Assembly (NCBI RefSeq): GCF_021729085.1 | Contig: NZ_JAJSAR010000002.1 | Span: 434,001-498,000, forward strand | Length of the DNA stretch: 64,000 nt | Direction of reading: 5' to 3' | From: Pseudohongiella sp. O18 | GTDB taxonomy: Bacteria; Pseudomonadota; Gammaproteobacteria; Pseudomonadales; Pseudohongiellaceae | In this document: positions 2,094 through 56,614 of the stretch, in pieces | How the letters are laid out: every line of letters starts with the position of its first letter | How positions within the stretch are numbered: the first letter of the stretch is position 1 | Translations under genes and position numbers: made by a program | The notes under the pieces: generated by a model | Database searches by the model: none | What the model was told of the DNA's origin: nothing | Seen by the model: only the letters and a program-made list of their open reading frames with translations

Positions 2094-2095
2094 AC

Positions 2096-2862: not shown

Positions 2863-2886
2863 ACGGCCCTGCCGCAATCCCTAATG

Positions 2887-2909
2887 GCTCACCTCGGTGG
2901 GCTTTTTTT
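2887..2909 (+). terminator. Rho-independent terminator before tail tube gene
   Basis: Stem GCTCACC / GGTGGGC (one G-U pair) followed by seven T residues. It separates the neck genes from the highly expressed tail tube gene. Confidence 0.65.
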
Positions 2910-2933
2910 ATGTCTGAAATATGAGGTGACATT

Positions 2934-3392: not shown

Positions 3393-3399
3393 GACCAGT

Positions 3400-3456
3400 T
3401 CACCGGGGGTAGGCTCGCGCAGCTGAAAGCGGACTCATCCACCGTTCCCCTGGTGA
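3400..3456 (+). promoter_or_regulatory. Long stem-loop between tail tube and chaperone genes
   Basis: A 10-bp stem (TCACCGGGGG with CCCCTGGTGA, one G-U) encloses a 37-nt loop. There is no T run, so it is not a classic terminator. It may protect the 3' end of the abundant tail tube message or reduce expression of the chaperone gene. Confidence 0.4.
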
Positions 3457-3494
3457 TTCGGATGACACTTTAAAAACTGCGAGGTATGAAGTTA

Positions 3495-3935
3495 ATGGAT
3501 ATTTCATCTGTTGTTAAAAAGAACACTACTGTCGTGACTGATTTTCGTATGCCAGATGGCACGCTGATCATTGACGAGAACACCAAAAAGCCAGCCACGA
3601 TTGAAATCTACGGGCCTGACACCGACGAGCATGCGCGCCTTGTAGCAAAGCGAGCTCGTGAGCTGCAGTTGAAGAATCGGGACAAGAAAAACAGCAAGGA
3701 TGCCGAGCCAGAACCGGTGACCGAAGAAATGGTCAAGGCCCAGAAGGAAAAGGACGTCGAATCGCTGGCAGAAATCACAGTTTCATGGACCGGGTGGTAC
3801 GAAAAAGGCAAGCCACTCAAATGCACGCCGGAAAATGCCAAACGTCTTTATCTGCTGATTGGCACCGTCCGCCGCAAGGTCGACAAAGCATTCGGTGATG
3901 AAGCAAATTTTTTGGAGATGTCGAAAGACAGCTGA
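3495..3935 (+). CDS. Tail assembly chaperone, short form (lambda gpG-like)
   Basis: 146 aa. The ATG at 3495 is preferred over the one at 3486 because the GAGG ribosome site is only 1 nt from the latter and 10 nt from the former. The protein is charged, with a lysine/glutamate-rich helical middle (residues about 50-90) and a compact C-terminal part. It precedes the tape measure gene, the fixed position of tail chaperones in long-tailed phages. Its last codons run through an A-AAT-TTT heptamer, and a -1 shift there fuses it to the next reading frame, as in the gpG/gpGT arrangement. Confidence 0.7.
   Translation: MDISSVVKKNTTVVTDFRMPDGTLIIDENTKKPATIEIYGPDTDEHARLVAKRARELQLKNRDKKNSKDAEPEPVTEEMVKAQKEKDVESLAEITVSWTGWYEKGKPLKCTPENAKRLYLLIGTVRRKVDKAFGDEANFLEMSKDS
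3905..3911 (+). promoter_or_regulatory. Probable -1 programmed ribosomal frameshift site
   Basis: The heptamer AAATTTT is read in the zero frame as xxA AAT TTT, matching the X XXY YYZ slippery rule. A -1 shift enters the frame of the 3944-4333 reading frame with no intervening stop, while the zero frame ends 22 nt later at TGA 3933-3935. Confidence 0.75.
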
Positions 3936-4333
3936 TCCTTTATGTGGATCACGAGGCATGGCTGCAAGTCGTGCCTGATTACGAAGATAAAGACCGCATA
4001 AGGCTGAGCCGAGAGGCCGAGTTTAAATACTACCAGGTTGAGTATGACAAAGCCCCTCTGCCAACCAATGGCCGTTATCTTCTGAGCTACTTTCGGCACT
4101 CTGGTCGATTTCTTCAAACCACCGGGGGACCGACCCCCTTAACCTGGACAGAGCTCGAATCATTTGACCGAGCCAACCAGCTTGATATGACAGTGTGGGA
4201 AAAGCGATTGCTCATGCAAATGTCGATCACCCACGTCAACGGATTGACTAAACACAAAGCCCCAGATTCACCGCCGCCTTACGTGTCCGAGGAAGACCCT
4301 CTCGGAAAACGGCGTGAGGCATTGAGGACGTAG
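3911..4333 (+). CDS. Tail assembly chaperone, frameshift extension (gpT-like)
   Basis: This -1 frame continues from the slippery site as FGDVERQLILYVDHEAW and runs for about 140 codons to a TAG just before the tape measure ATG. As a separate gene it would need a GTG at 3944, where no ribosome site is visible. As a fusion it makes the longer chaperone that binds the tape measure protein in the lambda model. The content (YYQVEYDKAPLPTNGRY, WEKRLLMQM) does not resemble a known enzyme. I read it as the C-terminal domain of a ~286-aa fusion product. Confidence 0.7.
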   Translation, partial: FGDVERQLILYVDHEAWLQVVPDYEDKDRIRLSREAEFKYYQVEYDKAPLPTNGRYLLSYFRHSGRFLQTTGGPTPLTWTELESFDRANQLDMTVWEKRLLMQMSITHVNGLTKHKAPDSPPPYVSEEDPLGKRREALRT

Positions 4334-7300
4334 ATGGATATAGCGAATATTGAAATCGGCATTGATACTCGCCCGCTATCAAAGGGCGAGGACTCATTGC
4401 GTTCTCTGGCGGTGACAGGGGGCCGCACTGAAAAGCAGCTGAATCAATCCACACAAAGGGCAGAGCAGGGCTTCAGCACCTTAACAAAGTCGATTGCTGC
4501 CACATCCGCAGTTCTGGCCGGCGTTGGCGTATACAGGGTTGTGGACGGTTTCAAACAGACTATTGTCGAGACCGAAAGGCTGCGCGGCTCGCTGGTAACT
4601 GTGACCGGCAGTGTTGATGGCGCCTCTGAAGCGTTTGCGCGCCTGACAGAATTTGCTGAGCAAACACCGTTTACGCTTGATCAGTCGGTTACTGCATTCA
4701 TTCGCCTGAAGTCTCTCGGCCTTGACCCTTCAGAGCGCGCTCTTCGCTCATACGGCAACACAGCTGCCGCAATGGGCAAAGATATGATGCAAATGATCGA
4801 GGCTGTTGCTGATGCCTCTACATTTGAATTTGAGCGTCTGAAAGAATTCGGTATTCGAGCCAAACAACAGGGTGATGAAGTTGCTCTGACATTCCAGGGC
4901 GTCACCACGGTTGTCGATAAAGAATCAGCGGCAATTGAAGAATATCTGACACGAATTGGTGAAAACCAGTTCGGCACGGCTATGGAAGACCAGATGGAGC
5001 GCATACCGGGCATGCTCTCCAACTTGGAAGATGCTGTTGACGGGTTTTTCCGCAAGATCGGTGACGATGGCGCCACTGACGCGTTCGCCGGTGGTATTCA
5101 GGCGGCCACAGTTGCCGTTGAAGGATTGACTGAAAATCTGGACACACTTGTCACCATCGGGCAAGTCGTTGCCACTATTTACGCCGGCAAAGTGGCTGCT
5201 TCGATTGCTACCTCCGCAACAGCTACTTACACAAAAATCGCTGCCAATGTGGCGCTGCTTAAATCTGAAAGAGACCTCGCAAACTCGGCCCTGCAGCGCG
5301 CGGTTCAGGAGCAGGCGGCAGCGGCGAGAAGCCTGCAGATGGCCCACAATGATACGCTGAGAGCTGGCGCAATCACTCGTCTTGCTGCTGCAAACCAACA
5401 GCTGACAGCCTCTCAAGTTGCTGCGAATGCTGCCACTGCAGCTTATACCCGTACCGCAACCCTCGGCGGTCGCGCATTGGGCATTCTTGGGCGAACAGCA
5501 GGGTTCCTGGGCGGGCCCGCCGGTATTATTGCGACTGTTGGCTTAGCCGCATGGCAGCTTAGTAGCGCCTTCAGTGATGTCAGCGACACAGCCGACGAGG
5601 CTACAAACAGCATCTCAGGCCTGAACGACGAACTCGAGGAAATGGGCTCAGCCCACAGCCGCCAGCTGCAGACCGAAATCACTGCTACGTCGATGATGCT
5701 GAACCAGGCTGTTGCCGTCTATGGAGCAAACAGCGAACAGGTCCAGCAGCTTCTGATCGACCTTGAGCTGCTGCGCAACGAATACAACGCGCTGACCGGC
5801 TCCACAGAGGGCGCGACGCAAGCGACTGGCGAGATGTCTGACAAAGCCTCTGAAGTCGTTGCCAAACTGAAAGACGAAATTGAAATGATCGGCATGACCG
5901 ATCGTGAGCGGGCAGTGCATATCGCGCTGCGTCAGGCTGAAGTCGATGCTGCCTCTGCTACAGGTCAGGAGATTAAACGCCTGGCTGAGCTTCGCTACGA
6001 CGAAGAAGAAGCCGCCGACGCTCAAGCGGAAGCAGAGAAAAAGCTGACCGATGCTCTCGATGATCAGGCCGAGAAAGTGTCTTCAATGATACTGGCTGAG
6101 CGTCAGCGTCAGGCTTCACTTGCTCTGTCTGGTCGCCAGAGAGAGATTTACAACGCTATTGTTCGTGCAGGCTTCGATCAGTCGCCACAGGATCTGGCCG
6201 CGATCGCTCGAGAGGTCGGGCTTCGATACGATCAGGAAGAGGCGATACGCGTAGCCACTGAAGCCACTGACGATGCCGCCCGGGCTGCTGAGCAGCTGCG
6301 TGAAGAAGAAGCGCAACTTGCCAAACAGATGCAGGAAGACTGGGCAGAAACCCGCCGCGAGTTTGGCCGCTTCTGGGCTGACATGGTTCAGGATGGTGAA
6401 AACGCATTTGATGCCTTGGCCAATTCCTTCGAGCGCATGCTGCTTGAGATGACCGGGCAGCTGGCGCTGTCTGGCCTCGCCAAACTATTCAATATTCAGA
6501 CTCCTGGTGGTGCCGCGGGTGGTATTCAGGGCATTTTGGACAGCTCTGGTTTTGCCGGTGATGCTGCTGGCGCTTTGCTGTCTCGATTCGGTGGTCAGCT
6601 CGGGCAGAACTCTGGCTTGACCGATATCCTGTCAGGCCTTGGCCTGCGTGATGCTGTGCAAACCGGTGCGGATTGGTCGACAGGATTGCCGACAGCTACC
6701 CAGGGCGGATTCAATGCCAATCAGCTGATCAGCGGCCTGAAAGACCTGGGCATGAATATCGGCGCCGGTTTCGCTGGTGGCTTTGCTGGTAACGAACTTG
6801 GCGAGGCGATATTCGGCAAAGAGGCTGAGTCGGCCCTTGGTCAGTCTATCGGCACCGCAATTGGCACATATCTTGGCGGCCCGCTCGGTGCGTTCATCGG
6901 CTCATCACTCGGCTCAATGGTTGATGTCATGACCGGTGGTGACGGCAAGGTTCGGCAGAATGCCGGCTTCCTTGTGGCTCCAACTCCCGGCGCCGATCCG
7001 TCACGCACGTTCCAGGTCGATCCGTTCTCATCAGGACTACAGGTCACCGGTTTCGCACGTCGCGCAGATCAGGCCCAGGCCATTCAGGTGATCGAACAGT
7101 TCCGTGGCGTTCATGATGTGTTCTTCGGCCTGATTGAGCAGCTGGGCGGCAAGCTGGATACCTCACGCGCAACTTTGGCCGGATTGGATGAAGAGGCCAC
7201 ACCGGGCAGCCTTGGCACGTTTATGGGTCTCGGTGGCAACGGCCAGCTGGCCGGGGATTTGCTGGCGCAGATCAATTACTTCATCGACCAGCTGGCAGAT

Positions 7301-8803
7301 TATGCCACTGGGCTTGATGAGGCGCTGCTGGATTCAATTCGAAGCGCAGGCAGTGCAGAGGCAGCAATATCCCTGCTATCGACCGCCCTGATCGAACAGG
7401 AAGCCGAAGCAGTCGCCGCGGCAGAAGCCGCTGAATCCTCAGCCGCAGCAACCAAGAAAGCAGCTGAAGCCGAGGCAAGGCTGCAGAAAGAGCGCCTTGA
7501 TGCAATCGAATCCATGCTGGGTGAGATGGAATCGATCAGGTCCATGCGCCAGTCTATGCAGGCTCAGTCCTATGAGCTGATGGGCGTCTCTCCGCTGTTC
7601 CAGATTGATGCCACGGTCACCGATCAGATTCGTCACATCGAGCAGATGCGCGATCTGCTGACCCGGCAGCACCAGGATGAACTGAGAGCCGAAGAGCAGC
7701 TTCACAACCAGCGCATGCGCCTGGCTCAGTCGATATCCGATTACACGGTCCGGCTGCAGCTCGGTGAGTTCTCCAACCTGTCAGGTGCTGGCCAGCTTGA
7801 TCTGGCACAGTCGCAGTTCCGTCAGCTGGCATCTGCTGCCTTGTCCGGTGATATGGATGCCGCGGCACGTATCGAGAACGCAGCAGAGGCCTATGTCACT
7901 GCAGCAGATCGTGAGTTCGCCAGTGGTGCCGGTCGCCGGGATGTCGTCACTGAAGTGCTGGCCGTCATGGATCAGCTGGGCGGATCGCTGGGCAGTTCGA
8001 CCTTTGACCCATCAGCTGCGAACCAGGCTCTGCTCAATGCGCTGGCGGGACTGGATTCTGAACTGGCTGAGATTGCTTCTGGCGTCAACGGCTCGATCAT
8101 TGATGAACTCAAAGGCATCAACGGCAAACTGTCCGACCTGCCCCCGGCGATGGCCAGTCAGCTTGCCGGTGTCATGAGTGCATTCCTTCAGTCTGCAGGC
8201 AATATGCAGCGGACTGTTGAATCCTACGGCTCTGGCACGCTTGCCAGAAGCGCCGGCGAAAAGGTTCTGACTGATCAGGGCTTCAATCTGAATTACACCG
8301 CAGACCAGATCATCGATCACATCGCCGCCATTGGCGGTATCGGTTCAGGTGACTTTGAGCGCGAAACCGCCGCCATTCGACAAATCTATAACGATGCGGT
8401 TGCGGCTGGCATTGGTTCCGCCCAGCTCGCTGATGTGGGCGGATACACGCAATCGGGAATCTATGAGGCGCTTCGCGCTGCTGGTATCGACCCGACCGGC
8501 TTTGCGCAGGGTGGTATCTCAACCGGACCCACCAGCGGCCACCTTGAAATGCTGCACGGTACAGAATTGATCGTGCCGATGAACAACGGTTTGCCAGGTC
8601 CAGTTCGCACTGCTGCCAACGATGGCGCCATGGTGCGCGAGATCCAGTCGCTGAATAACGAAGTTGTGCGCCTGCGCGAAACCGTTGCCATGATCGGTGA
8701 GGACGCCGCCAGCCAGCGTGACCGACAAGCCCGCATTGACTCTGAAATGAATGACGAGCTCAAGCGCGTCAACGGGAGGAAGGCAGTTGGCAATATCGGA
8801 TAG
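4334..8803 (+). CDS. Tape measure protein
   Basis: 1489 aa, starting directly after the preceding stop. Residues about 60-210 (GSLVTVTGSVDGASEAFARLTEFAEQ and onward) match the tape-measure N-terminal region. Long alanine/glutamine-rich coiled coils follow (about 270-360, 500-660, 1020-1150). A glycine-rich hydrophobic stretch near 790-870 could cross the host membrane during DNA ejection. The C-terminus has GGISTGPTSGHLEMLHGTE, typical of tape measure tails. Length sets the tail length; at about 1.5 Angstrom per residue this would give a tail of roughly 220 nm, a rule-of-thumb inference. No lysozyme or peptidase motif was noticed. Confidence 0.9.
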   Translation: MDIANIEIGIDTRPLSKGEDSLRSLAVTGGRTEKQLNQSTQRAEQGFSTLTKSIAATSAVLAGVGVYRVVDGFKQTIVETERLRGSLVTVTGSVDGASEAFARLTEFAEQTPFTLDQSVTAFIRLKSLGLDPSERALRSYGNTAAAMGKDMMQMIEAVADASTFEFERLKEFGIRAKQQGDEVALTFQGVTTVVDKESAAIEEYLTRIGENQFGTAMEDQMERIPGMLSNLEDAVDGFFRKIGDDGATDAFAGGIQAATVAVEGLTENLDTLVTIGQVVATIYAGKVAASIATSATATYTKIAANVALLKSERDLANSALQRAVQEQAAAARSLQMAHNDTLRAGAITRLAAANQQLTASQVAANAATAAYTRTATLGGRALGILGRTAGFLGGPAGIIATVGLAAWQLSSAFSDVSDTADEATNSISGLNDELEEMGSAHSRQLQTEITATSMMLNQAVAVYGANSEQVQQLLIDLELLRNEYNALTGSTEGATQATGEMSDKASEVVAKLKDEIEMIGMTDRERAVHIALRQAEVDAASATGQEIKRLAELRYDEEEAADAQAEAEKKLTDALDDQAEKVSSMILAERQRQASLALSGRQREIYNAIVRAGFDQSPQDLAAIAREVGLRYDQEEAIRVATEATDDAARAAEQLREEEAQLAKQMQEDWAETRREFGRFWADMVQDGENAFDALANSFERMLLEMTGQLALSGLAKLFNIQTPGGAAGGIQGILDSSGFAGDAAGALLSRFGGQLGQNSGLTDILSGLGLRDAVQTGADWSTGLPTATQGGFNANQLISGLKDLGMNIGAGFAGGFAGNELGEAIFGKEAESALGQSIGTAIGTYLGGPLGAFIGSSLGSMVDVMTGGDGKVRQNAGFLVAPTPGADPSRTFQVDPFSSGLQVTGFARRADQAQAIQVIEQFRGVHDVFFGLIEQLGGKLDTSRATLAGLDEEATPGSLGTFMGLGGNGQLAGDLLAQINYFIDQLADYATGLDEALLDSIRSAGSAEAAISLLSTALIEQEAEAVAAAEAAESSAAATKKAAEAEARLQKERLDAIESMLGEMESIRSMRQSMQAQSYELMGVSPLFQIDATVTDQIRHIEQMRDLLTRQHQDELRAEEQLHNQRMRLAQSISDYTVRLQLGEFSNLSGAGQLDLAQSQFRQLASAALSGDMDAAARIENAAEAYVTAADREFASGAGRRDVVTEVLAVMDQLGGSLGSSTFDPSAANQALLNALAGLDSELAEIASGVNGSIIDELKGINGKLSDLPPAMASQLAGVMSAFLQSAGNMQRTVESYGSGTLARSAGEKVLTDQGFNLNYTADQIIDHIAAIGGIGSGDFERETAAIRQIYNDAVAAGIGSAQLADVGGYTQSGIYEALRAAGIDPTGFAQGGISTGPTSGHLEMLHGTELIVPMNNGLPGPVRTAANDGAMVREIQSLNNEVVRLRETVAMIGEDAASQRDRQARIDSEMNDELKRVNGRKAVGNIG

Positions 8804-10229
8804 CGATTTTCGCAACTGGCTGCAGCAGCTCTCAAACGGACGTGGCAATCCCGTTGTCTTGATCGAAGCAAAGCACCATGACGGCAGCTCGGTAAAGACC
8901 CTGTATCTGTCAGATGCTGGCTATGAAGACCCGACCGACATCGATGCGCCGAACTACAAACCGGTTGTGTTGAATGAAGTCGTCATTGATGAAGTACTGG
9001 ATAGCTCAACGATCAGCGCCATCGAGATCAAGAACCTCGACGATGCCTGGCGGAATTATCGCTTCATCGGGTATGACTTCCATGTCTATTTCGGGGACAA
9101 GTCGTGGCCGCGCTCTGATTTTCGGCTTCAGGGTTTTAACAAGACGGCTGGCTTCACCTGCCCGCATCCGGATAAGTACCGTTTTGAATTCGATGATCTG
9201 CGAAGCATCTACTTTGATCAGCTGATTAACGGTAATGGCCTGGGTGCCGCTGCCGGTTTGCCGTTCGTCTTTGGCCGGGTGTTCAACTTTGAGCCGCTTC
9301 GCACCGGGTCCGACAAGTTCACCTACTACACACCGAACATCATTGCCTCGCCAGAGGCAGTTCGTGATAACGGCGTGGCTTTAAGTGGCTACACGATCAA
9401 CTTCATCGCGGACGGTACAGGCGATGGGTTGCGCATCGATGTTCAGCTGACAGCGCCCCCATCAGGGCGTGTAACGATCGACATACGCCCGGGCGTTCCG
9501 CCGAACCCAAACCCGGCATGGCTATCGAGCAACCTGAAGTACCTGCTGCAGCAAATGAATGCCTACATGCAGATTTCGATCCCACTGGGGTCAACGCTCG
9601 ACACCGCGCCCACAGACGATATCGGTTACGCGTTCTATCAGTACGGCAGCGCCCGGGAGATGCTGACAGAGATGTGCGACAGCCTGGGTCTGAATCCGCG
9701 CATCAACAATGCGGGGCAGCTGGACGTCATTCAGATCAGCGATGGTGGAACATCAACACGCACTGTCACAGATGCAAACGTGCGCGGCTTCATGTCGCTT
9801 GATGCTCGCGAACCTCCTTACAAACAGCTTGAGCTTGGCTACCGGCGCAACTGGGCGGTGCAGGGTACTGACACCCTCGCTGGATCGGTTTCTGCTGCCA
9901 ACGCGCTGCTGTATAGCCGCGAGCACACCTACGCGAAGCAGACACGAACCCTGACCGGTTACCCATTCGTAAAGAACGCCAAAGTCGACACACTGATTTA
10001 TGAATCAACTGACGCCTCTGACGAACTGGATCGGCGCTGGAACTTGCGTGACGTCGAGCGTCAGCAGTGGGCATTCAAAGGTGATGCGACGTTCATCGCT
10101 GACGATATCGCCGACACCATTACCATCACGCACAGGGATTATGGTTTATCTGCTGGCGCTGATTTTGTGGTGCTTGAGAACCGGAAAAACCTCACACGAA
10201 GAACCTGCCAGCTGAGGGTGTGGAAATGA
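8787..10229 (+). CDS. Tail tip / distal tail protein
   Basis: 480 aa. I choose the TTG at 8787 because GGGAGGAAGG lies 7 nt upstream; the in-frame ATG at 8751 is deep inside the tape measure gene with no site. It opens with SDSDFRNWLQQLS and has a beta-rich first half (ALEIKNLDDAW-like strands, FHVYFGDKSWPRSDFRLQG) followed by a second domain with many tyrosines. It follows the tape measure, where distal-tail and hub proteins lie. No enzymatic motif is visible. Family unknown to me; the structural role is from position. Confidence 0.6.
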   Translation: MAISDSDFRNWLQQLSNGRGNPVVLIEAKHHDGSSVKTLYLSDAGYEDPTDIDAPNYKPVVLNEVVIDEVLDSSTISAIEIKNLDDAWRNYRFIGYDFHVYFGDKSWPRSDFRLQGFNKTAGFTCPHPDKYRFEFDDLRSIYFDQLINGNGLGAAAGLPFVFGRVFNFEPLRTGSDKFTYYTPNIIASPEAVRDNGVALSGYTINFIADGTGDGLRIDVQLTAPPSGRVTIDIRPGVPPNPNPAWLSSNLKYLLQQMNAYMQISIPLGSTLDTAPTDDIGYAFYQYGSAREMLTEMCDSLGLNPRINNAGQLDVIQISDGGTSTRTVTDANVRGFMSLDAREPPYKQLELGYRRNWAVQGTDTLAGSVSAANALLYSREHTYAKQTRTLTGYPFVKNAKVDTLIYESTDASDELDRRWNLRDVERQQWAFKGDATFIADDIADTITITHRDYGLSAGADFVVLENRKNLTRRTCQLRVWK

Positions 10230-11074
10230 GCTACAAGATCATGATTGGCACCGTCAATCAGCTGGAGAACATGACGGTCACCAGCACCCATTCAGCTGAT
10301 GCAGCACACCCACTGAGTAACCTGACCAATGGCATTAAAGACATTCCCACCAGGTGGGATGTTAGCTCGACCACATCATTCGCAATCAAAGGCACCTCAG
10401 CCACAGCAGTGAACGTGAACGCCCTGATGATTAAGGGCCACAACTTCACCGGATCCGCGACTGTCCGGCTGCGCTTGTACTCAGGTGAAAACCAGACCGG
10501 CACGCTGCTATTCGACAGCACGTCAAAAGTGCCGCTGACCAATCGCGCCTTTGGTGAGCTGATCGCGGGTGTTCACAAGATTGATGGGTACCTGGAACTG
10601 GAGAACCGACTCGATCCCGTTTACACGCTGACCTTTGACACCGCTCTGATTAAGTCGTTTCAGATCGACATCGATGCCACTGGCTCGCCGGATGATGTAC
10701 TGCGAATCGATACGGTCGCGCTCTTTTTCGGCTGGTCGCCTGACTACAACTTCAGCTACGGGTATGACCAGGGCATTCAGGAAGACGCTGAGCACGAACA
10801 ATCCCGCGGGGGAGGGCTTCACACATTCGCCATGCCGGCGCGCCGATCACTGCGCGTGGAATTCGAATTGATGGAAACCCTGAACAACAACACATTCCTT
10901 GACCTGATGTCGGCCATCGGCATGGGCGGCAATGTGTATATAATCCCCAATCCCAGCGCAACCGGGTACACCAAGTACCTCGGTAACTCAATTTACAAAC
11001 GAAACAGCCAGGCCACCCGCAGGGCGCGATTCTTTAACGGCAACAGCTCAACATTGGTGCTGGAGGAAAACTGA
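10226..11074 (+). CDS. Tail tip-associated structural protein
   Basis: 282 aa. ATG overlaps the previous TGA (ATGA); an in-frame GTG 6 nt upstream is less likely. The N-terminal 170 residues form a beta-sandwich-like pattern (VNALMIKGHNFTGSATVRLRLY) resembling discoidin-type carbohydrate-binding folds. The C-terminal part has GGGLHTFAMPARRSLRVEFELM, seen in distal tail proteins that wrap the tube end. It probably belongs to the baseplate-like tip between the hub and the fibre. Function is inferred from order. Confidence 0.5.
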   Translation: MSYKIMIGTVNQLENMTVTSTHSADAAHPLSNLTNGIKDIPTRWDVSSTTSFAIKGTSATAVNVNALMIKGHNFTGSATVRLRLYSGENQTGTLLFDSTSKVPLTNRAFGELIAGVHKIDGYLELENRLDPVYTLTFDTALIKSFQIDIDATGSPDDVLRIDTVALFFGWSPDYNFSYGYDQGIQEDAEHEQSRGGGLHTFAMPARRSLRVEFELMETLNNNTFLDLMSAIGMGGNVYIIPNPSATGYTKYLGNSIYKRNSQATRRARFFNGNSSTLVLEEN

Positions 11075-16037: not shown

Positions 16038-17225
16038 ATGTTGGAATTTATAAAAGAAGAAAAAAGGCTAGTTCTTTCCTACAGCGGCGAGCTTAGACCC
16101 TCTGGCTGGATATATTCCGAGCTAGAAAAGGGTCATGATGTGACATTAAGACGAACATTTACAGTCTCAAAAAATGAGTTGTGGTCTGAAGAAGATCCAA
16201 TCGATGAAGAAGCTCCAGTGCTATTCGTAATCGGCTCAAAGAATGGACAATATTACAGCTTGTCAAGGACAGTGATGGGAATCGAGCACGATCTCTTTAT
16301 CCATGAGGATATCGAGCTCACGACTAAGATATTCATTGCAGAGCGGAATATTTCAATTTTTTCAAGATTAGATCAGCTCATCAAAGGGGATGTTCGAATT
16401 GGTGGCCAAGATGATTCATCAATACCAGAAGAGGCATTTACGAAATTATTACGAAACTTCCCAAATTCTTATGAGCTAACACGATATGCCTTCGCTCGGG
16501 TTGGAGCAGTAATTTCCTCATACCTGAAAACAAAAGAGGACTATGAGGAAAAGTACCAAAACTATATGGATCGGAGAGCAAGCATAGAAGGATCTAATGC
16601 GTATCAACTAGTTGCAAATGCCGAGATTGAAAAGTACAAACTTCTTCTCTCTAAGCTGAAGGGCATGCTTGAAAAAGAAGAATCTTATTCTGAAACTCAG
16701 TGGCAAGAAGAAATATTGCAAATTATTCTCCTTCTTTACCCTAAATACATCCTTGCATTTAAAGAAGCGCCCGTGCGCGATACGTACAACAAAAAAGACA
16801 GAAAAATTGATATTCTACTTGTTGATTCAACTGGCAATGCAGACATCATAGAAATAAAAAAACCTTTTGATAAATGCATCGTAACAGATCGCACCTATCG
16901 TGATAATTACATCCCTCTTCGAGAATTATCTGGCACTGTCATGCAGATTGAAAAATATATTTTCTACCTGAATAAATGGGGTAGAAACGGAGAAGAGAAA
17001 TTAACATCGCACTACCAAGATAAATTAGAACCGGGGTTTTCCATTAGGATTACAAGTCCAGGGGGGATAATAATCATGGGGCGGGAGACAGGCTTGTCAG
17101 CAGAACAACGCCAAGATTTCGAGGTTATCAAGCGCAAATACAAAAGTTTGATAGACATAATTACGTATGATGATCTTCTGGCACGTTTAGAATCAACATT
17201 AAAACACTGGACAAAACACACATAA
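16038..17225 (+). CDS. sduA-like: Shedu-type anti-phage nuclease (DUF4263 / SduA family)
   Basis: 395 aa. The C-terminal region carries the DUF4263 PD-(D/E)xK-like nuclease core: SETQWQEEIL (about 218-227), KIDILLVD with D258, then IIEIKKP with E272 and K274, and downstream QIEKYIFYL. The N-terminal 200 residues form the variable region thought to sense infection in Shedu proteins. Shedu is known as a single-protein system that assembles and cleaves DNA; here a second gene sits directly upstream. The TAA stop lies inside the left arm of an attC-like hairpin. Low GC relative to the flanks indicates acquisition. Confidence 0.85.
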   Translation: MLEFIKEEKRLVLSYSGELRPSGWIYSELEKGHDVTLRRTFTVSKNELWSEEDPIDEEAPVLFVIGSKNGQYYSLSRTVMGIEHDLFIHEDIELTTKIFIAERNISIFSRLDQLIKGDVRIGGQDDSSIPEEAFTKLLRNFPNSYELTRYAFARVGAVISSYLKTKEDYEEKYQNYMDRRASIEGSNAYQLVANAEIEKYKLLLSKLKGMLEKEESYSETQWQEEILQIILLLYPKYILAFKEAPVRDTYNKKDRKIDILLVDSTGNADIIEIKKPFDKCIVTDRTYRDNYIPLRELSGTVMQIEKYIFYLNKWGRNGEEKLTSHYQDKLEPGFSIRITSPGGIIIMGRETGLSAEQRQDFEVIKRKYKSLIDIITYDDLLARLESTLKHWTKHT

Positions 17226-17288
17226 CAATCAGATGCAGCGCGGCAATTTACGCCTAGCTTCAATTGCCCGCTGAGCGGGTCGTTAGCA
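17220..17288 (+). other. attC-like integron recombination site after Shedu gene
   Basis: Left core ACATAAC and right core GTTAGCA bracket a hairpin: CAGCG (17236-17240) with CGCTG (17269-17273) and GGCAATT (17242-17248) with AATTGCC (17262-17268). A single extra C at 17241 is unpaired, like the extrahelical base of attC sites, and unpaired spacers separate cores from stem. The stop codon of the upstream gene is inside the left core. Total length about 69 nt is in the attC range. Confidence 0.55.
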
Positions 17289-17314
17289 CAAAAAAAGAAA
17301 CTACAGGGGCAAGA

Positions 17315-19624
17315 ATGAAAATCGAGAGCAAAATCACATTCGAACGCTGCCTGCGCGAAGGTATTAATATTTTTACAGGTGCGGGTTTTTCGCTGCTCGC
17401 TAAAGATAAACAAGGACGCCATCTGCCTATCGGGGATGAGTTACGTAATGAGCTATTGGAAGAATTCCCTACAGCTCCAAAAACGTTGCAGCTCCCACAG
17501 TTGTGTACATTCTTATCGCGCTCAAGAAAGGATGATCTGGATAGATACATAAAGGCAAGGTTTGATGTAGGTAGCTTTAGTGACAAATACAGATACTTGG
17601 AATTCATAAATCCAAGATTTATATTTACCACTAACGTGGACAATCTCTTGGAATGTGTATTTCGTGGAAATCCGAATAAGTACCTAAACAACACAAGGTT
17701 AAATGGGGTAAGTATCAAGGACAAATCTGCGATAGATTATATATATCTTCATGGCAGTATTTCTGATGATGAGTCCCCACTAATATTTGGCGACTTAGAT
17801 ATTGCTAGCGCGTTTTCTAATGACCCTACTCGATGGAATTATTTTAGATCCCTTATGAATAGGCACCCAACCCTATTCTGGGGGTATGCGTTGAGAGACG
17901 CAGGAACTCTCCAAGTTTTCTCCGACGCTATAGATGACAACAACAAGAAGAACTCATGGATAATTGTCCATCCGGAATACACATCCGACGATGAAGTACA
18001 GTATTACAAATCATTAGATTTAAAAATCATAAGCTCTGACACCGAGGAATTTTTAGAGTACCTCAAGACGTTCGAGGCAGTGTCTCCGGCCGATGAGGAA
18101 GCTTATGTAAATCCTTTTCCTGAATACGAAATTCCAAGTCACTCCGACATCAAACACAGAGCAATACAAGACTTCTATCTTGGAGCCGCTCCCACTTGGA
18201 GTGATATTTATTCTCCGCGTGTCGCAAAGCTTCGCTTTTATAGCAGCGTCGAAGAACAAGTCAATAGTGGTAAAAACGTTTTGATAACTGGAGGTCCGGC
18301 AACTGGCAAAACTACATTGCTGATGCAATTTGCCGCGTTTCACAATTTCAATGGCATTAAGATTCTGCTTTCCGAAATCTCGACTGCAAAAGCACAAACA
18401 ATCGCAACGAAGCTGTCTGGCATTCCAACCTTGTTGTTCGTCGATAACCTACAGACATCAATTGAAGCATTAAACCACCTTTCCCAGAATAAAAATATTC
18501 AGCTAATCATTGCCGAAAGAGATTATGCATATTTATCTGCTTCAAGCGCTAATTTTTTGAGGAAAGATATTGAAATAATCGATATTACAACGCTGAATGA
18601 AAAAGATGCACAAGCAGTGATTAACAATATCCCTATAGATATAAAGTCGAGAAAGAGTTACAAGTTTAGAGATGGCGACTCTTTGTTTGAACTCATTGAA
18701 AGAAACTGCAGAGCGCCGTCAATCAAGGAGCGTTTCCACAATGTCATAGATAGCCTTCGGAAGAAAGACGAGCAACTTGTCCAGCTTTTCCTATTGGCGT
18801 GCTACCTGCATACATGCAGAAGCATAACCTCAATGGATGTAATTTATAGTTACTTTGGTAAATCGTATAACGACTACAGAGGGTTATACGATTTGATAGC
18901 TATTCTTAGTAGCAGCTTGTCGGAATATGTTGGCGAGTTCGCTGAAGGGGATCAAGATTACTTTTCGATACGCTCAAACTTGCTGGCGGATCATATTTCT
19001 ACAATAGCGCCAACAGAAGATTTGGCGATTATGCTGAGCAATTTCCACAACAATGTTCCTCGATTTTGCGTCCCGAATTTCGATTCCTTTAAGCGGAGGG
19101 CTTATGACGCTCGAATATTCGAGAGGGCATTTCCAAAGGTAGAAGATGGCGCAGCAATATACGACGTGATCTATCGAAAGCATAACTCACCATTTAACTT
19201 GCAACAAAAAGCGTTGTATTTGAGCCGAAGAAAGGACCACCAGCGAGCGTTTGAAGTCATAGATGAAGCTATTTCCAAAGGTGGGAGTCGAAACTGGTCA
19301 ATAAAGAACTCATACGCGATCATTAAGTTTAAAGCCAGTATAGAACGAAAGGATTCTCCGGACGTTCGAAAAGCTCTGGACGAAAGTATGGAGGCATTAG
19401 AGCAATGTCATTCAGCAGATGTAAGAAAGGCCTTCCACGCAATGTCTTTTGCTGATCATTCATTGCGATACTGGCAAAAGTATCGAGATAAAGTCGCTGT
19501 TTCCTATTTGGAAAAAGCAAAGGATTGGTTAAGCGAGGAGGCTGATGAGGACAACCGAATAGGAAATGTGTCGCGACTGCTTAATCAGGTTAATAAAGCC
19601 CTAGCGTCCGCTAAGAAGCGCTAA
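17315..19624 (+). CDS. SIR2-STAND anti-phage NTPase (Avs5-like)
   Basis: 769 aa from the ATG with AGGGG 5 nt upstream. The N-terminal SIR2-like NAD-hydrolase domain shows TGAGFS (22-26 for GAGFS), FTTNVDN (TTNVD 105-109) and YLHGS with H146, so the catalytic set appears intact. A STAND/AAA NTPase follows with Walker A GGPATGKTT (326-334) and Walker B LLFVDN (373-378). The last 350 residues are helical repeats, the likely sensor. In this family recognition of a phage protein triggers oligomerisation and NAD depletion. It lies between two attC-like sites. An older label would be SIR2 family protein. Confidence 0.85.
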   Translation: MKIESKITFERCLREGINIFTGAGFSLLAKDKQGRHLPIGDELRNELLEEFPTAPKTLQLPQLCTFLSRSRKDDLDRYIKARFDVGSFSDKYRYLEFINPRFIFTTNVDNLLECVFRGNPNKYLNNTRLNGVSIKDKSAIDYIYLHGSISDDESPLIFGDLDIASAFSNDPTRWNYFRSLMNRHPTLFWGYALRDAGTLQVFSDAIDDNNKKNSWIIVHPEYTSDDEVQYYKSLDLKIISSDTEEFLEYLKTFEAVSPADEEAYVNPFPEYEIPSHSDIKHRAIQDFYLGAAPTWSDIYSPRVAKLRFYSSVEEQVNSGKNVLITGGPATGKTTLLMQFAAFHNFNGIKILLSEISTAKAQTIATKLSGIPTLLFVDNLQTSIEALNHLSQNKNIQLIIAERDYAYLSASSANFLRKDIEIIDITTLNEKDAQAVINNIPIDIKSRKSYKFRDGDSLFELIERNCRAPSIKERFHNVIDSLRKKDEQLVQLFLLACYLHTCRSITSMDVIYSYFGKSYNDYRGLYDLIAILSSSLSEYVGEFAEGDQDYFSIRSNLLADHISTIAPTEDLAIMLSNFHNNVPRFCVPNFDSFKRRAYDARIFERAFPKVEDGAAIYDVIYRKHNSPFNLQQKALYLSRRKDHQRAFEVIDEAISKGGSRNWSIKNSYAIIKFKASIERKDSPDVRKALDESMEALEQCHSADVRKAFHAMSFADHSLRYWQKYRDKVAVSYLEKAKDWLSEEADEDNRIGNVSRLLNQVNKALASAKKR

Positions 19625-50724: not shown

Positions 50725-52029
50725 TCAGGGGGCAATGGACAAGCGGTGTGTCTGTCGAACCTGTTCAGCCATCTGCGGATCCACACCTGCCGCTTCGACA
50801 TAAGCCTGCCAATTATCTACGCTGTCGCAAACCTGCCGTATCAGCGTTCTGGCACGCCTGGGTTTAATCCCGCCCAGCGTGGCCAGCGCCATCAGGTCCT
50901 CCAGCACAAAACCATCACGCTTGCCATTGATGCTCATCTGGTGCTGCGCGGTGAATTTACCCTGCGGATTGTAGGAGTAAGCTACATCAAAGGCGGGGGA
51001 GAGCCACCATTGTCCCTGAGGATTCATCAGGAAAGCGATGTTCTTGACGTGGTCGTCCTGATTTCTGGCAATGACGTTCAGACTTGCGCGCAGTAATTGC
51101 TGCTCGGCGTCTTTGATAGGGTTTTTGCAGATCTGTCGGATGGCCTGCATGGCCTGCTCATAGCTGTAGCTGCTCGGATCGTTGTAGTCGAAGTGACACA
51201 GGCCACCCAGGGACAGCATGTGAATCTTTTTGCCCTCGGCAGTCCGGTCGAAACGGCGCGTCATAAAGTGCGCCCTGCCACCTTCTTCATGCAGACGGCA
51301 TTCTTTCATGTCGATGCCGGCATCTCTGGCCATCAGGTAGTAGGCATACTCCAGCCGTCCAAAACCCTGAGGGTCAGCCAGCTCACGGTCGCGGTTATTG
51401 CTGATGCCATCAAATTTCAACAGCCAGTGTTCAAAACCCTCGGGGCCGGCAAGCTGGCCAGAGCGGAACTCGCCGGTATTTCGATTCCAGAGCAGCAGGG
51501 CCTTGGCGCGGGCGCCGCCTGCCGAGGTTCCAACACGAAGAATATTCTGCAGATGGTCCTGATCTTCGGTGCTGCCATCAAGCAGCCCAGCCAACTCACC
51601 GCGTTGAGACAGCACTTTGTTGGCCAGTTTCGTCAGTGCAGCCACATCCACATGGGAATCATTATCGGCCTGCGGGCCAACCGTTGGTTCGAACTCCAGC
51701 GCGCCCATGCCGCGTCTTCCAATGTAGCAAAGTCGCTCCACCGGATTCATGCTGTTGGGCTTTCTGCCCTCAGCCGCCAGCCATGCGTCGATCAGCCGGT
51801 TGCCAAACTTGTCAGGCAGACTGTCGGCGACCAGTCCCGGCAGGTTTGAAAAACTGCCTTTGAGCTGGGGGAACTGATAAATCGCCTGGCTCAGTGGCAT
51901 GGTGATGGGGCTGACTTCGATGCCAGAGTGGCGAAATGCCTCATCGTATTCAAATACGCCGAGTTCGCGTTCATCATCCCAGACAACGGCGCCAATCGTT
52001 TTTCCCCACAGCCGGACGGCAGCGCTCAT
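50725..52029 (-). CDS. hipA: HipA-family serine/threonine kinase toxin
   Basis: 434 aa. It has the HipA N-terminal domain (MSAAVRLWGKTIGAVVWDD, then SLPDKFGNRLIDAWL), the phosphorylation loop VGTSAGGARAKAL, and the kinase core RRFDRTAEGK, NVIARNQDDHVKNIAFLM (D for catalysis and N for Mg2+) and SPAFDVAYSYN. It probably phosphorylates a tRNA synthetase to cause dormancy. The start overlaps the hipB stop as ATGA. Functional residues look intact. Confidence 0.92.
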   Translation of the reverse strand: MSAAVRLWGKTIGAVVWDDERELGVFEYDEAFRHSGIEVSPITMPLSQAIYQFPQLKGSFSNLPGLVADSLPDKFGNRLIDAWLAAEGRKPNSMNPVERLCYIGRRGMGALEFEPTVGPQADNDSHVDVAALTKLANKVLSQRGELAGLLDGSTEDQDHLQNILRVGTSAGGARAKALLLWNRNTGEFRSGQLAGPEGFEHWLLKFDGISNNRDRELADPQGFGRLEYAYYLMARDAGIDMKECRLHEEGGRAHFMTRRFDRTAEGKKIHMLSLGGLCHFDYNDPSSYSYEQAMQAIRQICKNPIKDAEQQLLRASLNVIARNQDDHVKNIAFLMNPQGQWWLSPAFDVAYSYNPQGKFTAQHQMSINGKRDGFVLEDLMALATLGGIKPRRARTLIRQVCDSVDNWQAYVEAAGVDPQMAEQVRQTHRLSIAP

Positions 52030-52406
52030 CAGGGCGTCTCCTGCTCATCCCAGGACCAGGCGGGCATGGGTTTAACGGCTTTCTTGCGCGCTCGCTGTCG
52101 CGACTTGTCTTTACTGACCCGTTTGCCGGGCGATTTAATCGCCTGCATGGGAGTGATACCTGCGCGGGGGAGTATCAGTTCGAGTGAATCCGCCTGACCA
52201 AGTGCCTGCAGAAGACGAACCAGTGTTTCCAGCGAGCCGCCGTTGCCGGCTTCAAAACGGCGCAATGTGCGGACAGCGACGCCGGATTTTTCCGCCAGTT
52301 CGTCCTGGGTAATGTTTTGCTGCAGACGGCTGGCCGCGACGCGATCGCCGAGTTCTCGCAGGACTATGGCAGGAGGCGCTATTGTAAAATCTATTTTAGA
52401 GGCCAT
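52029..52406 (-). CDS. hipB: HipB-family XRE antitoxin
   Basis: 125 aa. The HTH_XRE domain is GDRVAASRLQQNITQDELAEKSGVAVRTLRRFEAGNGGS (residues about 17-55), followed by a basic tail of lysines and arginines (GKRVSKDKSRQRARKKAVKP). It binds the repeated operator upstream, one copy of which overlaps its own start codon. It neutralises HipA in the complex. The start ATG lies inside the operator GGCCATATATTGCC. Confidence 0.9.
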   Translation of the reverse strand: MASKIDFTIAPPAIVLRELGDRVAASRLQQNITQDELAEKSGVAVRTLRRFEAGNGGSLETLVRLLQALGQADSLELILPRAGITPMQAIKSPGKRVSKDKSRQRARKKAVKPMPAWSWDEQETP

Positions 52407-52568
52407 ATATTGCCTTTAATATCGATAATATGCGAATAAGAGGTCAGAAGTGGCTAATAAAGATGATGTTTTAAGTGCCTGTTGATCGTGCTATTGGATG
52501 TAAATAAAAGGTCATAATATGCCTATTAATACGATATATCAATATCAAAAGGCCATATATTGCCTTTT
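52398..52568. promoter_or_regulatory. Three HipB-type operator repeats
   Basis: GAGGCCATATATTGCCTTT (about 52400-52418, overlapping the hipB start), AAAAGGTCATAATATGCC (52506-52523) and AAAAGGCCATATATTGCC (52547-52564) share arms AGGC and GCCT around an 8-nt AT spacer. The third is the most symmetrical, AAAAGGC with GCCTTTT. They span the whole gap between hipB and the tubulin-like gene, so that gene may also be affected. Confidence 0.65.
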
Positions 52569-52673
52569 ATAAAGGTGTTTGTGAATGCTGGTGGAAAAAA
52601 GAAACATTGACACGGACCCGGTGCTATATTCGATTTTCGTCTCGAGAACGCTAATCAATCTAAGGGAATGCCA

Positions 52674-53159
52674 ATGAAATATCGCGAACTTGCAGAATTA
52701 CTGGGTGCACTTTCTCCCGAGGTCAAAGCCAGTCTGGCCAGTGATCTGGCCGAAAGTCTGGGTTCCCACACAGCCCTGCCTGCGGTGTCTGCTGATCAGG
52801 AAGTTGAGTTTCATAACCCGATCTCGGTAATGGCACTGGAAAATGAAAAGGTCCATCAAGTCCTTTACGACACAATCATGCGTATGGATATCGACATGCG
52901 TAAAGACATTCCCATGGCGTGGAATATGGTTGTTGGCGTGTCGCCTGAGATGTTGAAACACATGGGTCCAGACATCAGGACCCTGGATGCTGCTACCGCG
53001 AAGGAGATCCTGGATCTGGAAATGGACCGAGTCAGGCGATTGCTGGATGCCTGTACTGGCCTGCAGGGCTTTCTGGTATTCAACAGTATCGGCGGTGGTA
53101 AGGGCAGTGGTCTGGGTTCGTTGATTTTGGAGCGAGCGTCTAACGAACTTAAAGAGTAA
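52674..53159 (+). CDS. Small protein with a tubulin-like signature segment
   Basis: 161 aa. ATG 52674 is chosen because AAGGG lies 7 nt upstream; an ATG at 52668 is too near. No signal or membrane segment. Residues 1-100 ([18 protein letters not shown] and onward) resemble no family I know. Residues 108-156 closely match the alpha-tubulin stretch before and through its GTP-binding loop: [25 protein letters not shown] (126-136) and GGGKGSG (140-146), where tubulin has GGGTGSG. The protein stops soon after, so the rest of the GTPase is missing. It looks intact, not a fragment, since it has its own ribosome site. Role unknown. Confidence 0.6.
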
Positions 53160-53167
53160 AAACTGTG

Positions 53168-54133
53168 CTAGTGGGTCTGCGCCAGCGGCGCAGACTCTTG
53201 TCGTCCAAACTGCTCACGGTAGCGTCTGGGTGACACTCCAATCGCCGCCCGAAAGTGATGGCGCAGATTGCTTGCATTGCTGAACCCGGACAGTTCGGCC
53301 ACTTTCTCTACATCATGTCGCGTGCTTTCCAGCAGCTGACGCGCGGCGTCCAGTCTCTGTGTGGTCAGCCATTCCTTGGCGGACACGCCAAATGTGTCCC
53401 TGAACTTACGATCGAACGTGCGTCTCGACATCCGCGCTTTTTCCGCAAACTCGTCGATGCCAATCGGACGGGAAAGGTTGTTCATGGCCCAGTCCAGAGA
53501 TCTGGAAAACTGGCTGGGTTTCTCTGGCATTGGAGTTTCCACAAACTGGGACTGTCCGCCCTGGCGATGGGCGGACATCACCAGGCGGCGTGCCACACGA
53601 TTGGCCACGCGGTAGCCGAAGTCACTGCGAATCACCTCCATGCCCAGGTCGATGGCGGCAGCACTGCCTGCTGAGCAGCCAATCTGCCCGTCGTAGACGT
53701 ACAGCACGTCGTCTTCATACTCGATCTGCGGATAAAGCGTCTTGAGTTTGTCCGCATAACGCCAGTGGGTTGTCGCCTTGCGCCCATCCAGTATTCCCAG
53801 CTGCGCCAACAGGAAGGCGCCCGAGCAAAAGGTCAGGATACGTTTGTCAGAGTTGTGGGCGTTTATCAGCTCCGAACGGATGGCCTCGGGTACGGGTTTG
53901 CCGTCGGTCGACCAACTCGGGATGACGATCATGGAGTAGTCGGCAAGGCTGCTGACTGTCTTGACGGCAATGCTGACGCCGCCGGTGCCGACAATAGAAC
54001 CCTCGGCGAACGACACCACGTCGCAACGATACCAGTCGTCCATTTCGGGTCGTGGCAGCGCAAACAGCTCTACAGCGCAGCCCAGTTCAAACAGTGCGAT
54101 CCGGTCGTGTACCAGAATGGCCACACGATGCAT
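53168..54133 (-). CDS. GlxA-family transcriptional regulator (DJ-1/PfpI + AraC)
   Basis: 321 aa from MHRVAILVHD, with GGAGA 8 nt upstream; the longer ORF start adds 19 residues without match. The N-terminal DJ-1/PfpI-like amidase domain (residues about 3-170, with FCSGAFLLAQLG around the nucleophile-elbow position) is followed by a C-terminal AraC double HTH (GIDEFAEKARMSRRTFDRKFR and VEKVAELSGFSNASNLRHHFR). Divergent from the rhodanese gene, which it probably controls. The ligand is unknown. Confidence 0.92.
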   Translation of the reverse strand: MHRVAILVHDRIALFELGCAVELFALPRPEMDDWYRCDVVSFAEGSIVGTGGVSIAVKTVSSLADYSMIVIPSWSTDGKPVPEAIRSELINAHNSDKRILTFCSGAFLLAQLGILDGRKATTHWRYADKLKTLYPQIEYEDDVLYVYDGQIGCSAGSAAAIDLGMEVIRSDFGYRVANRVARRLVMSAHRQGGQSQFVETPMPEKPSQFSRSLDWAMNNLSRPIGIDEFAEKARMSRRTFDRKFRDTFGVSAKEWLTTQRLDAARQLLESTRHDVEKVAELSGFSNASNLRHHFRAAIGVSPRRYREQFGRQESAPLAQTH

Positions 54134-55180: not shown

Positions 55181-56101
55181 ATGCAAATTAATGTCGCAGT
55201 GGTTAATGCGTTTGTCGATGGTGCGGCTGATACTGGTGCCGCAATGAATGGCGCAGCTTTGGAAAATACTATCGGTGGAAATCCGGCGGGCGTTGTACTT
55301 GATGCGGATAGTCTGACATCTATTCAAAAGCGGGAGATCGCCAGAAAAGTGGGCCTGTCAGAGACCGCCTTCGTCTCGAAGTCTTCGGTGGCGGACTTCA
55401 AACTGGAGTTTTTTACCCCGACACGACAGATTGCTCACTGCGGACACGCGACGATCGCGACATTCAGTTACCTGGCAGAGCAGGGCCTGGTGCCGGCCGC
55501 AAATACGTCGAAAGAGACCATTGATGGTTGCAGAGGTATCCGGATGCAGAATGGCTTTGCTTACATGGAGCAACTCAAGCCTAAGTACATTGACGTCACT
55601 GAGGACGAAACAGCCATTTTGAAATCACTGCGGCTTGCAGGCGGCAGCGTGACGGTAGCTCCAATTATCGCCAATACCGGAAACTCATTTGTCCTGGTGG
55701 GCGTTCGGGATCTGGAAACATTGAAGCGCATTCAACCCGATCAGATTTTGATCGAAGAATTGTCGGAGAAGTGGGACTTAATCGGGTTTTATGTGTTTGC
55801 GCAGGAAACCTGCCATGCCGGCAGAGATGCCTCCGCCCGGATGTTTGCGCCGCGCTATGGCATCCAGGAAGAGTCGGCCACTGGGATGGCCGCAGGGCCA
55901 CTGGCCTCTTTTCTCCACGACCATCTGGGTATTCACAAAAGAGCTTTTGAAATTGAGCAGGGCTACTGCATGCCAAATCCGTCGCCTAGTTGTATCCACA
56001 TTACACTTGAGAAATCGGGTACTCAAATCACGTCTCTGTCAGCAGGCGGGCGTGGCGTCTTGAGCAGAATGCTGCAGATAGAAATAGATGCGACGCTGTG
56101 A
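55181..56101 (+). CDS. PhzF-family isomerase
   Basis: 306 aa, ATG with AGGAAG upstream. GNPAGVVLDADSL near residue 35 and TPTRQIAHCGHATIATFSYL near residue 90 are the PhzF hallmarks; ATGMAAGPLASFLHDHLG near 230 is the matching second-half segment. The family is a diaminopimelate-epimerase-like fold, often of unknown substrate outside phenazine clusters. No phenazine genes are near. Third gene of the rhodanese-GNAT operon. Confidence 0.9.
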   Translation: MQINVAVVNAFVDGAADTGAAMNGAALENTIGGNPAGVVLDADSLTSIQKREIARKVGLSETAFVSKSSVADFKLEFFTPTRQIAHCGHATIATFSYLAEQGLVPAANTSKETIDGCRGIRMQNGFAYMEQLKPKYIDVTEDETAILKSLRLAGGSVTVAPIIANTGNSFVLVGVRDLETLKRIQPDQILIEELSEKWDLIGFYVFAQETCHAGRDASARMFAPRYGIQEESATGMAAGPLASFLHDHLGIHKRAFEIEQGYCMPNPSPSCIHITLEKSGTQITSLSAGGRGVLSRMLQIEIDATL

Positions 56102-56614
56102 TCAGAGCTCGGCGATCCATGCCACGGCAAGATGAAACGAGCCAACCTGTTTGTCTGCCAGCAGAAAGCCTATCTGTTCGACTTTTGCGGCATCAAATAC
56201 GGGGCCAGGCAGGTTGCGGCCCCTAAAAACAGGCTTCAGACCGGAAAATGGAATGGGTATCTCTAGCCACTGACCCTTAACGGTATCTAAACCGAAACTG
56301 TAGGCAATTCTGGAGCCCTGGTAAGAGGCGTCCGTGTACAGCCGGAACTGGTAGCGGCGACCATCACCACGAACGCAGAGCATCAATCCATGCAGCTTGC
56401 TCAAATCCTGACGGTGCTGCCCGCGGATGGATGCAAAGCCACCGTTGTTCTCCAGCGAAATGACACCGGAAAAGTGCAGGCAGCCGTCGGCGATCTCTGG
56501 AGCGCTGTTCGAACGGCCGCCCATGACCTCATCGTCTATGGCGCGCCAGTTGGTTTGGGACACGCTATTGGAGAAGTCGAGCAGAACTGTGTCTGGTGTT
56601 TGCCTTGAGTTCAT
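56102..56614 (-). CDS. CIA30-family protein
   Basis: 170 aa. DFSNSVSQTNWRAIDDEVMGGRSNS and GVISLENNGGFASIRGQ match the complex-I intermediate-associated protein 30 domain, a carbohydrate-binding-like beta sandwich. In bacteria it stands alone and its role is undefined. No signal peptide. Its stop is next to the convergent PhzF stop. Confidence 0.88.
   Translation of the reverse strand: MNSRQTPDTVLLDFSNSVSQTNWRAIDDEVMGGRSNSAPEIADGCLHFSGVISLENNGGFASIRGQHRQDLSKLHGLMLCVRGDGRRYQFRLYTDASYQGSRIAYSFGLDTVKGQWLEIPIPFSGLKPVFRGRNLPGPVFDAAKVEQIGFLLADKQVGSFHLAVAWIAEL

What the first reader, a model, noticed from the sequence alone, without database searches (positions are those of the whole stretch)
52674..53159. 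Small bacterial protein with an alpha-tubulin-like GTP-loop segment
Residues 108-156 line up closely with the region of eukaryotic alpha-tubulin running into its GTP-binding loop: [14 protein letters not shown], then [10 protein letters not shown], then GGGKGSG where tubulin has GGGTGSG. The pattern resembles tubulin more than FtsZ (GGGTGTG). The protein is only 161 aa, has its own ribosome site and stops 15 residues after the loop, so it lacks the rest of the GTPase fold. Its first 100 residues are unlike anything I recognise. It lies just past the hipBA operators. This could be a tubulin-derived domain fused to an unknown module, a horizontally acquired piece, or a new small family. The tubulin comparison is from memory.
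Basis: partly seen in the sequence, partly recalled or inferred. Interest (0 to 1): 0.9.

Follow-up and report, generated by a model that had tools for sequence, protein, structure and literature searches.

The report
Bacterial orphan protein with tubulin fragment
A bacterium carries a small gene, with no relative found so far, whose protein ends in a 49-residue piece closely matching the alpha-tubulin of nuclear cells, apparently captured and fused to an unrelated front part; it is too small to be a working tubulin and its role is unknown.

Summary
The ORF at 52674-53159 (161 aa; 163 from ATG 52668) ends in a 49-residue ungapped match to alpha-tubulin residues 111-159: 36 of 49 identical, E 2.4e-17 against PDB chains, Pfam Tubulin 42.1 bits over a cut-off of 33. 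It is tubulin-like, not FtsZ-like (raw score 170 against 39 for the genome's own FtsZ). Only 51 of 190 profile positions are covered and the loop reads GGGKGSG, so a working GTPase is very unlikely. No credible relative appeared in 136 other family genomes, in samples of order, class and phylum (two phylum hits near E 0.01 look like chance), or in phages and plasmids. A sister genome lacks this segment beside hipBA and has other genes there. The first 110 residues have no significant relative; residues 53-81 resemble actin (E 0.024), but unrelated proteins match about as well. Best reading: a lineage-restricted gene built around a captured piece of eukaryotic alpha-tubulin; any function, such as interfering with filaments, is inference. 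Structure prediction was uninformative.

The parts
52674..53159 (+). Orphan ORF, 161 aa (163 aa from ATG 52668), containing the tubulin fragment
   Evidence: codon score 0.331 bits per codon in its frame, -0.46 and -0.76 in the other + frames, -0.005 to -0.71 on the other strand
52662..52667 (+). Ribosome-binding-site-like AAGGGA, 6 nt before ATG 52674
   Evidence: Sequence
52998..53144 (+). Alpha-tubulin-like segment, equivalent to tubulin residues 111-159
53091..53111 (+). GGGKGSG, counterpart of the tubulin signature loop GGGTGSG (Lys in place of Thr)
52824..52910 (+). Weak actin-like stretch (residues 53-81, equivalent to actin 265-293); a lead, not established
   Evidence: For; against:
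52579..53201 (.). Segment with no counterpart at this place in sister genome G008, which has about 2.4 kb of other genes here
   Evidence: no DNA match in 135 other family genomes
52550..52571 (.). Distal hipBA operator-like repeat, next to the left breakpoint (other copy 52400-52421)
50725..52406 (-). hipB-like (52029-52406) and hipA-like (50725-52029) genes, divergent from the ORF; neighbours, not part of it

Best explanation
The ORF is a lineage-restricted gene that arose when a short piece of a eukaryotic alpha-tubulin gene (about codons 111-163; by recalled tubulin anatomy helix H3, strand S4, the T4 glycine loop and helix H4) was joined in frame behind a front part of unknown origin, at a variable site beside hipBA. 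Shown: homology of the C-terminal 49 residues to alpha-tubulin; absence of the rest of the GTPase domain; no relative found in the genomes searched; different genes at the site in a sister genome. Inferred: eukaryotic donor, capture of a gene piece, expression. Most likely way of acting, if it acts (inference, perhaps one in five): the piece cannot hydrolyse GTP or polymerise by itself but may dock on filament proteins and interfere with their assembly, as small filament inhibitors do. The chief alternative is that it does nothing.
For: Alpha-tubulin match E 2.4e-17, ungapped, 36 of 49 identical; PF00091 over its cut-off but only on positions 87-137 of 190; the 60 PDB hits shown, of 273 up to E 10, are all alpha-tubulins; FtsZ match far weaker. 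No relative in 136 other family genomes, no DNA match in 135. G008 keeps hipBA (90% nt) and the block with the AraC-type gene (77% nt) but has other genes in between. Only the ORF's own frame scores as coding.
Against: No second copy, so selection cannot be tested. Codon usage does not date the capture: eukaryotic-type tubulin genes of L037 and L038 score 0.23 and 0.14 on the same synonymous measure, the ORF 0.14, six neighbours 0.09-0.29; the codon model was trained on window genes that include those neighbours. The donor DNA was not found; against L038 only 9 of 31 shared residues use the same codon. No sigma-70-like promoter was found on the + strand of 52400-53300. There is no evidence of any kind for binding to filaments.
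Confidence: 0.55

Rival explanations
1. A functionless captured fragment: foreign DNA that happens to be open and is drifting towards decay (same origin as the best reading, no function).
For: Singleton in all searches made; the site differs in a sister genome; no recognised promoter.
Against: Open frame of 161 codons with a ribosome-site-like sequence and coding-like codon usage in this frame only; tubulin part still 73% identical to an alpha-tubulin.
Confidence: 0.35
2. A cytoskeletal mosaic: an actin piece (about 265-294, perhaps to 324) fused to the alpha-tubulin piece. This overlaps with the best reading.
For: Residues 53-90 hit actins first in the PDB, E 0.024, 0.0029 when trimmed. Raw score 68 to beta-actin: 0 of 5000 shuffles of residues 1-110 reach it, though the best reaches 64; 0 of 245 chunks of window ORFs reach it, best 45, reversed chunks best 52. 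Raw score 75 to the alpha-actin piece, 0 of 20000 shuffles, best 43. Softer scoring extends the alignment to residue 110 (score 90, reached by 1 of 5000 shuffles).
Against: The database E-value is marginal and the trimming was post hoc. Like scores to the same stretch came up in unrelated proteins: 33.9 bits to a protein recalled as HutH (residues 27-89), 30.8 bits to a 218-aa frame (residues 37-83); raw 75 is about 33 bits by my arithmetic. Pfam Actin did not report it. Residues 1-52 and 83-110 against beta-actin score no better than shuffles, and residues 1-52 and 80-117 have no PDB match.
Confidence: 0.15
3. Assembly or binning contamination from a eukaryote.
For: Such contamination seems to exist elsewhere: near full-length alpha-tubulin genes in a Verrucomicrobiaceae MAG.
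Against: The ORF lies inside a 1.43-Mb contig of a genome at 0.15% contamination, between genes shared with sister genomes, and its front part is not tubulin.
Confidence: 0.03

Closest known systems
Eukaryotic alpha-tubulin (PF00091 GTPase domain)
   Same: 49 residues, 36 identical, including the counterpart of the glycine signature loop
   Different: Only 51 of 190 profile positions; Lys for Thr in the loop; nothing else of tubulin found at the locus
Bacterial tubulins BtubA/BtubB of Prosthecobacter (PMC3349469: abstract seen; PMC2746283: start of abstract seen)
   Same: Tubulin in a bacterium, which PMC3349469 holds to come from eukaryotes by transfer
   Different: Those assemble into protofilaments; this is a fragment. 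No direct sequence comparison with BtubA/B was made here
Eukaryote-type actin and profilin in Microcystis aeruginosa (PMC3254629: title and start of abstract seen)
   Same: Eukaryotic cytoskeletal genes on a genomic island of one bacterium
   Different: Actin and profilin that co-localise in the cell, not a fused fragment
CbtA toxin of E. coli (PMC5624674: abstract and outline seen)
   Same: Model for the inferred function only: a small protein (124 aa) acting on FtsZ and MreB
   Different: No sequence relation was tested or is claimed

Membership tests
Tubulin/FtsZ GTPase family (PF00091) | Significant profile match | tested here: met
   42.1 bits, cut-off 33, E 1.5e-10
Tubulin/FtsZ GTPase family (PF00091) | Complete GTPase domain | tested here: not met
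   Only positions 87-137 of 190 matched; a typed alpha-tubulin finds only residues 111-158 at the locus
Tubulin/FtsZ GTPase family (PF00091) | Signature loop GGGTG[ST]G | tested here: not met
   Reads GGGKGSG; the motif is recalled, its tubulin form GGGTGSG seen
Tubulin/FtsZ GTPase family (PF00091) | Helix-strand-loop-helix fold of the fragment | tested here: inconclusive
   Mean pLDDT 37.9 (helix 108-129, strand 134-139, helix 149-162) and 63.0 (three helices, no strand)
Tubulin/FtsZ GTPase family (PF00091) | GTP binding and polymerisation | not testable with these tools
   Needs the purified protein
FtsZ | Closer to FtsZ than to tubulin | tested here: not met
   Raw score 39 to own FtsZ, 170 to alpha-tubulin
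Bacterial tubulins BtubA/BtubB | Closer to BtubA/B than to eukaryotic alpha-tubulin | not tested
   No BtubA/B among the 60 of 273 PDB hits shown; no direct comparison made
Actin | Significant match of the front part | tested here: inconclusive
   E 0.024, trimmed 0.0029; matches of like score to unrelated proteins; no Pfam Actin hit
PF09720 Unstab_antitox | Score over cut-off | tested here: not met
   15.3 and 16.3 bits, cut-off 23.3
hipBA module | Constant partner of hipBA | tested here: not met
   G008 has the same hipBA with other genes beside it

The most novel reading that the evidence does not exclude
A bacterial protein assembled from pieces of both eukaryotic actin and alpha-tubulin, kept because it engages filament proteins of the cell itself or of a eukaryotic neighbour.
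Probability: 0.1. Interest if true: 0.85.

Novelty: new variant of a known kind. Interest (0 to 1): 0.55.

Why it matters
Transfers of cytoskeletal genes from eukaryotes to bacteria are on record. A short piece of alpha-tubulin sitting in frame inside a bacterial orphan gene would be a case of gene birth by capture of a protein fragment, with a differing site in a sister genome to compare. If it is expressed, it asks directly what a tubulin unit of about 50 residues can do outside the GTPase.

Tried and rejected
Whole protein as a diverged or frame-shifted tubulin: a typed alpha-tubulin against all six frames of the locus finds only residues 111-158 with any strength; the other matches are at noise level. 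Residues 1-52 as actin upstream of 265: my eye suggested it, shuffles gave no support (4970 of 5000 reach the local score; 4199 of 5000 in the constrained alignment). Residues 83-112 against actin 288-335: 782 of 5000 shuffles reach the score. Two phylum hits, E 0.0077 and 0.0097, inspected: the C-terminus of a protein recalled as HutH, and a frame on the opposite strand of a gene recalled as nrdA; this is chance level for 398 genomes. Two genus hits of the front part, E 0.04 and 0.7 per genome, looked at: a 218-aa frame (30.8 bits, same genus) and one that local tblastn did not recover; taken as chance. MreB as relative of the front part: raw score 43. Chaperonin (CCT) substrate mimic: the review PMC3268035 (passages seen) lists actin sites 37-51, 62-66, 195-206 and 229-250, none in the actin-like stretch; of its tubulin sites 126-133 lies inside the fragment and 160-164 at its end; idea dropped. 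Defence system: only DrmE at E 0.0086 with no stretch passing. Literature: the eight searches listed no report of a tubulin fragment in a bacterial orphan gene; listings were cut at 5 to 10 papers (8 of 167), and beyond listings I saw two abstracts with outlines and one set of passages. Both structure predictions were too weak for a fold search, and none was run.

Full report
What is there. The ORF at 52668-53159 (+) is open for 163 codons; the ATG at 52674 has AAGGGA at a usual distance, so 161 aa is the likelier product. Numbering below is from 52668. phmmer against PDB chains gives 273 sequences at E up to 10; the 60 shown are all alpha-tubulins, best E 2.4e-17, and the three alignments printed run without gaps over residues 111-159. 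Pfam Tubulin scores 42.1 bits over a cut-off of 33, on positions 87-137 of 190; NCBIfam (E up to 1) and PHROGs (E up to 10) give nothing for the full protein. This is far beyond chance.

Tubulin, not FtsZ. PF00091 finds two places in the genome, FtsZ and this ORF. The ORF aligns to that FtsZ with raw score 39, against 170 for alpha-tubulin. The signature loop reads GGGKGSG. The rest of the GTPase domain was not found: a typed alpha-tubulin searched against the locus and the window in six frames gives nothing else above noise. A working GTPase or tubulin is therefore very unlikely; no assay was possible.

The front 110 residues. No family passes its cut-off; PF09720 scores 16.3 bits against 23.3, and one PHROG comes up at E 0.17. 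Residues 1-52 and 80-117 alone have no PDB match up to E 10. Residues 53-90 hit actins (E 0.024, 97 sequences up to E 10, the 60 shown all actins; E 0.0029 after trimming). Over 53-81, 12 of 29 residues are identical; raw score 75, reached by 0 of 20000 shuffles, best 43. Against a typed beta-actin the score is 68: 0 of 5000 shuffles of residues 1-110 reach it, but the best reaches 64; 0 of 245 chunks of window ORFs reach it, best 45, reversed chunks 52. Against the actin reading, other searches gave matches of like strength to the same stretch in unrelated proteins: 33.9 bits to a protein recalled as HutH and 30.8 bits to a 218-aa frame of a genus member. Shuffles test one target, not a database, so I treat actin as a lead.

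Distribution. Tallies, own genome included: 1 of 95 relatives, 1 of 137 in the family, 1 of 369 in a class sample, 1 of 390 in an order sample, 3 of 398 in a phylum sample, of which two near E 0.01 look like chance. These sets overlap. The DNA segment has a match in 1 of 136 family genomes, its own. tblastn of the whole protein against 72,556 plasmid and 50,697 phage records found nothing at E 0.01; the DNA or the front part against plasmids gave nothing, the front part against phages two matches at E 3 and 7, the tubulin part against phages nothing up to E 10. A pattern scan of the collection of 84,980 prokaryote species with the whole protein confirmed none of 47 stretches (exact short peptides, so close relatives only); with the tubulin piece it confirmed 2 of 74, both in one Verrucomicrobiaceae MAG. 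These two encode uninterrupted alpha-tubulin over residues 1-396 (contig end) and 1-439, 85% and 86% identical to the typed one; I read them as eukaryotic contamination. Viral contigs: 0 of 8 and 0 of 58 stretches confirmed. These tools may leave out the own genome and very near ones.

Site. G008 is the nearest genome of the genus by the hipA-like protein (96%) and the AraC-type protein (82%). Its hipBA region matches at 90% up to about window 52578, and the block with the AraC-type gene resumes at 53202. Between them G008 has about 2.4 kb with four other genes: by recall an ASCH-like, a MerR-like and a PhzF-like one, and one akin to the window's CIA30 gene. The last two match window 55274-56500 at 69%, so they lie elsewhere in our genome. 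In G013 the AraC-type gene (76%) has different neighbours on that side. So this is a variable site, and the ORF is not a fixed part of hipBA.

Codon usage. Only the ORF's own frame scores above zero as coding (0.331 bits per codon; six neighbours 0.22 to 0.43, which are in the training set). On a synonymous measure the ORF scores 0.14 (0 of 2000 uniform recodings reach it), its middle part only 0.05, and the eukaryotic-type tubulins of L037 and L038 score 0.23 and 0.14. So codon usage shows neither age nor selection.

Structure. Single-sequence AlphaFold2 gave mean pLDDT 37.9; a three-sequence run on residues 100-163 gave 63.0 without the expected strand. Neither supports nor refutes the fold.

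Verdict. The likeliest history is capture of a gene piece from a eukaryote into a new, lineage-restricted bacterial gene; the donor and the direction are inferred. Whether it does anything is open; interference with filaments is my inference, modelled on CbtA (abstract and outline seen). The confidences of the readings overlap, since the first rival shares the origin of the best reading and the mosaic reading is a special case of it.

Noticed in passing
window 1704-11074: Phage head-tail module: head closure, tail terminator, major tail protein, tail assembly chaperone, tape measure, then two PHROGs of unknown function.
   Followed up: partly
window 16038-19624: Shedu SduA gene followed by a gene with SIR2-like and STAND NTPase domains, both at low G+C (0.39 and 0.42), beside the phage module: perhaps defence cargo.
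   Followed up: partly
L037, L038 (JAIYDP010000231.1, JAIYDP010000217.1): A Verrucomicrobiaceae MAG in the species collection holds near full-length eukaryotic-type alpha-tubulin genes, probably contamination.
   Followed up: partly
L034:3109-5471: The site beside hipBA is variable: the sister genome has four other genes there, two of which match window 55274-56500.
   Followed up: partly
L045:1504-1641: A 218-aa frame of a genus member resembles residues 37-83 of the ORF (34%, 30.8 bits); probably chance, but in the same genus.
   Followed up: partly
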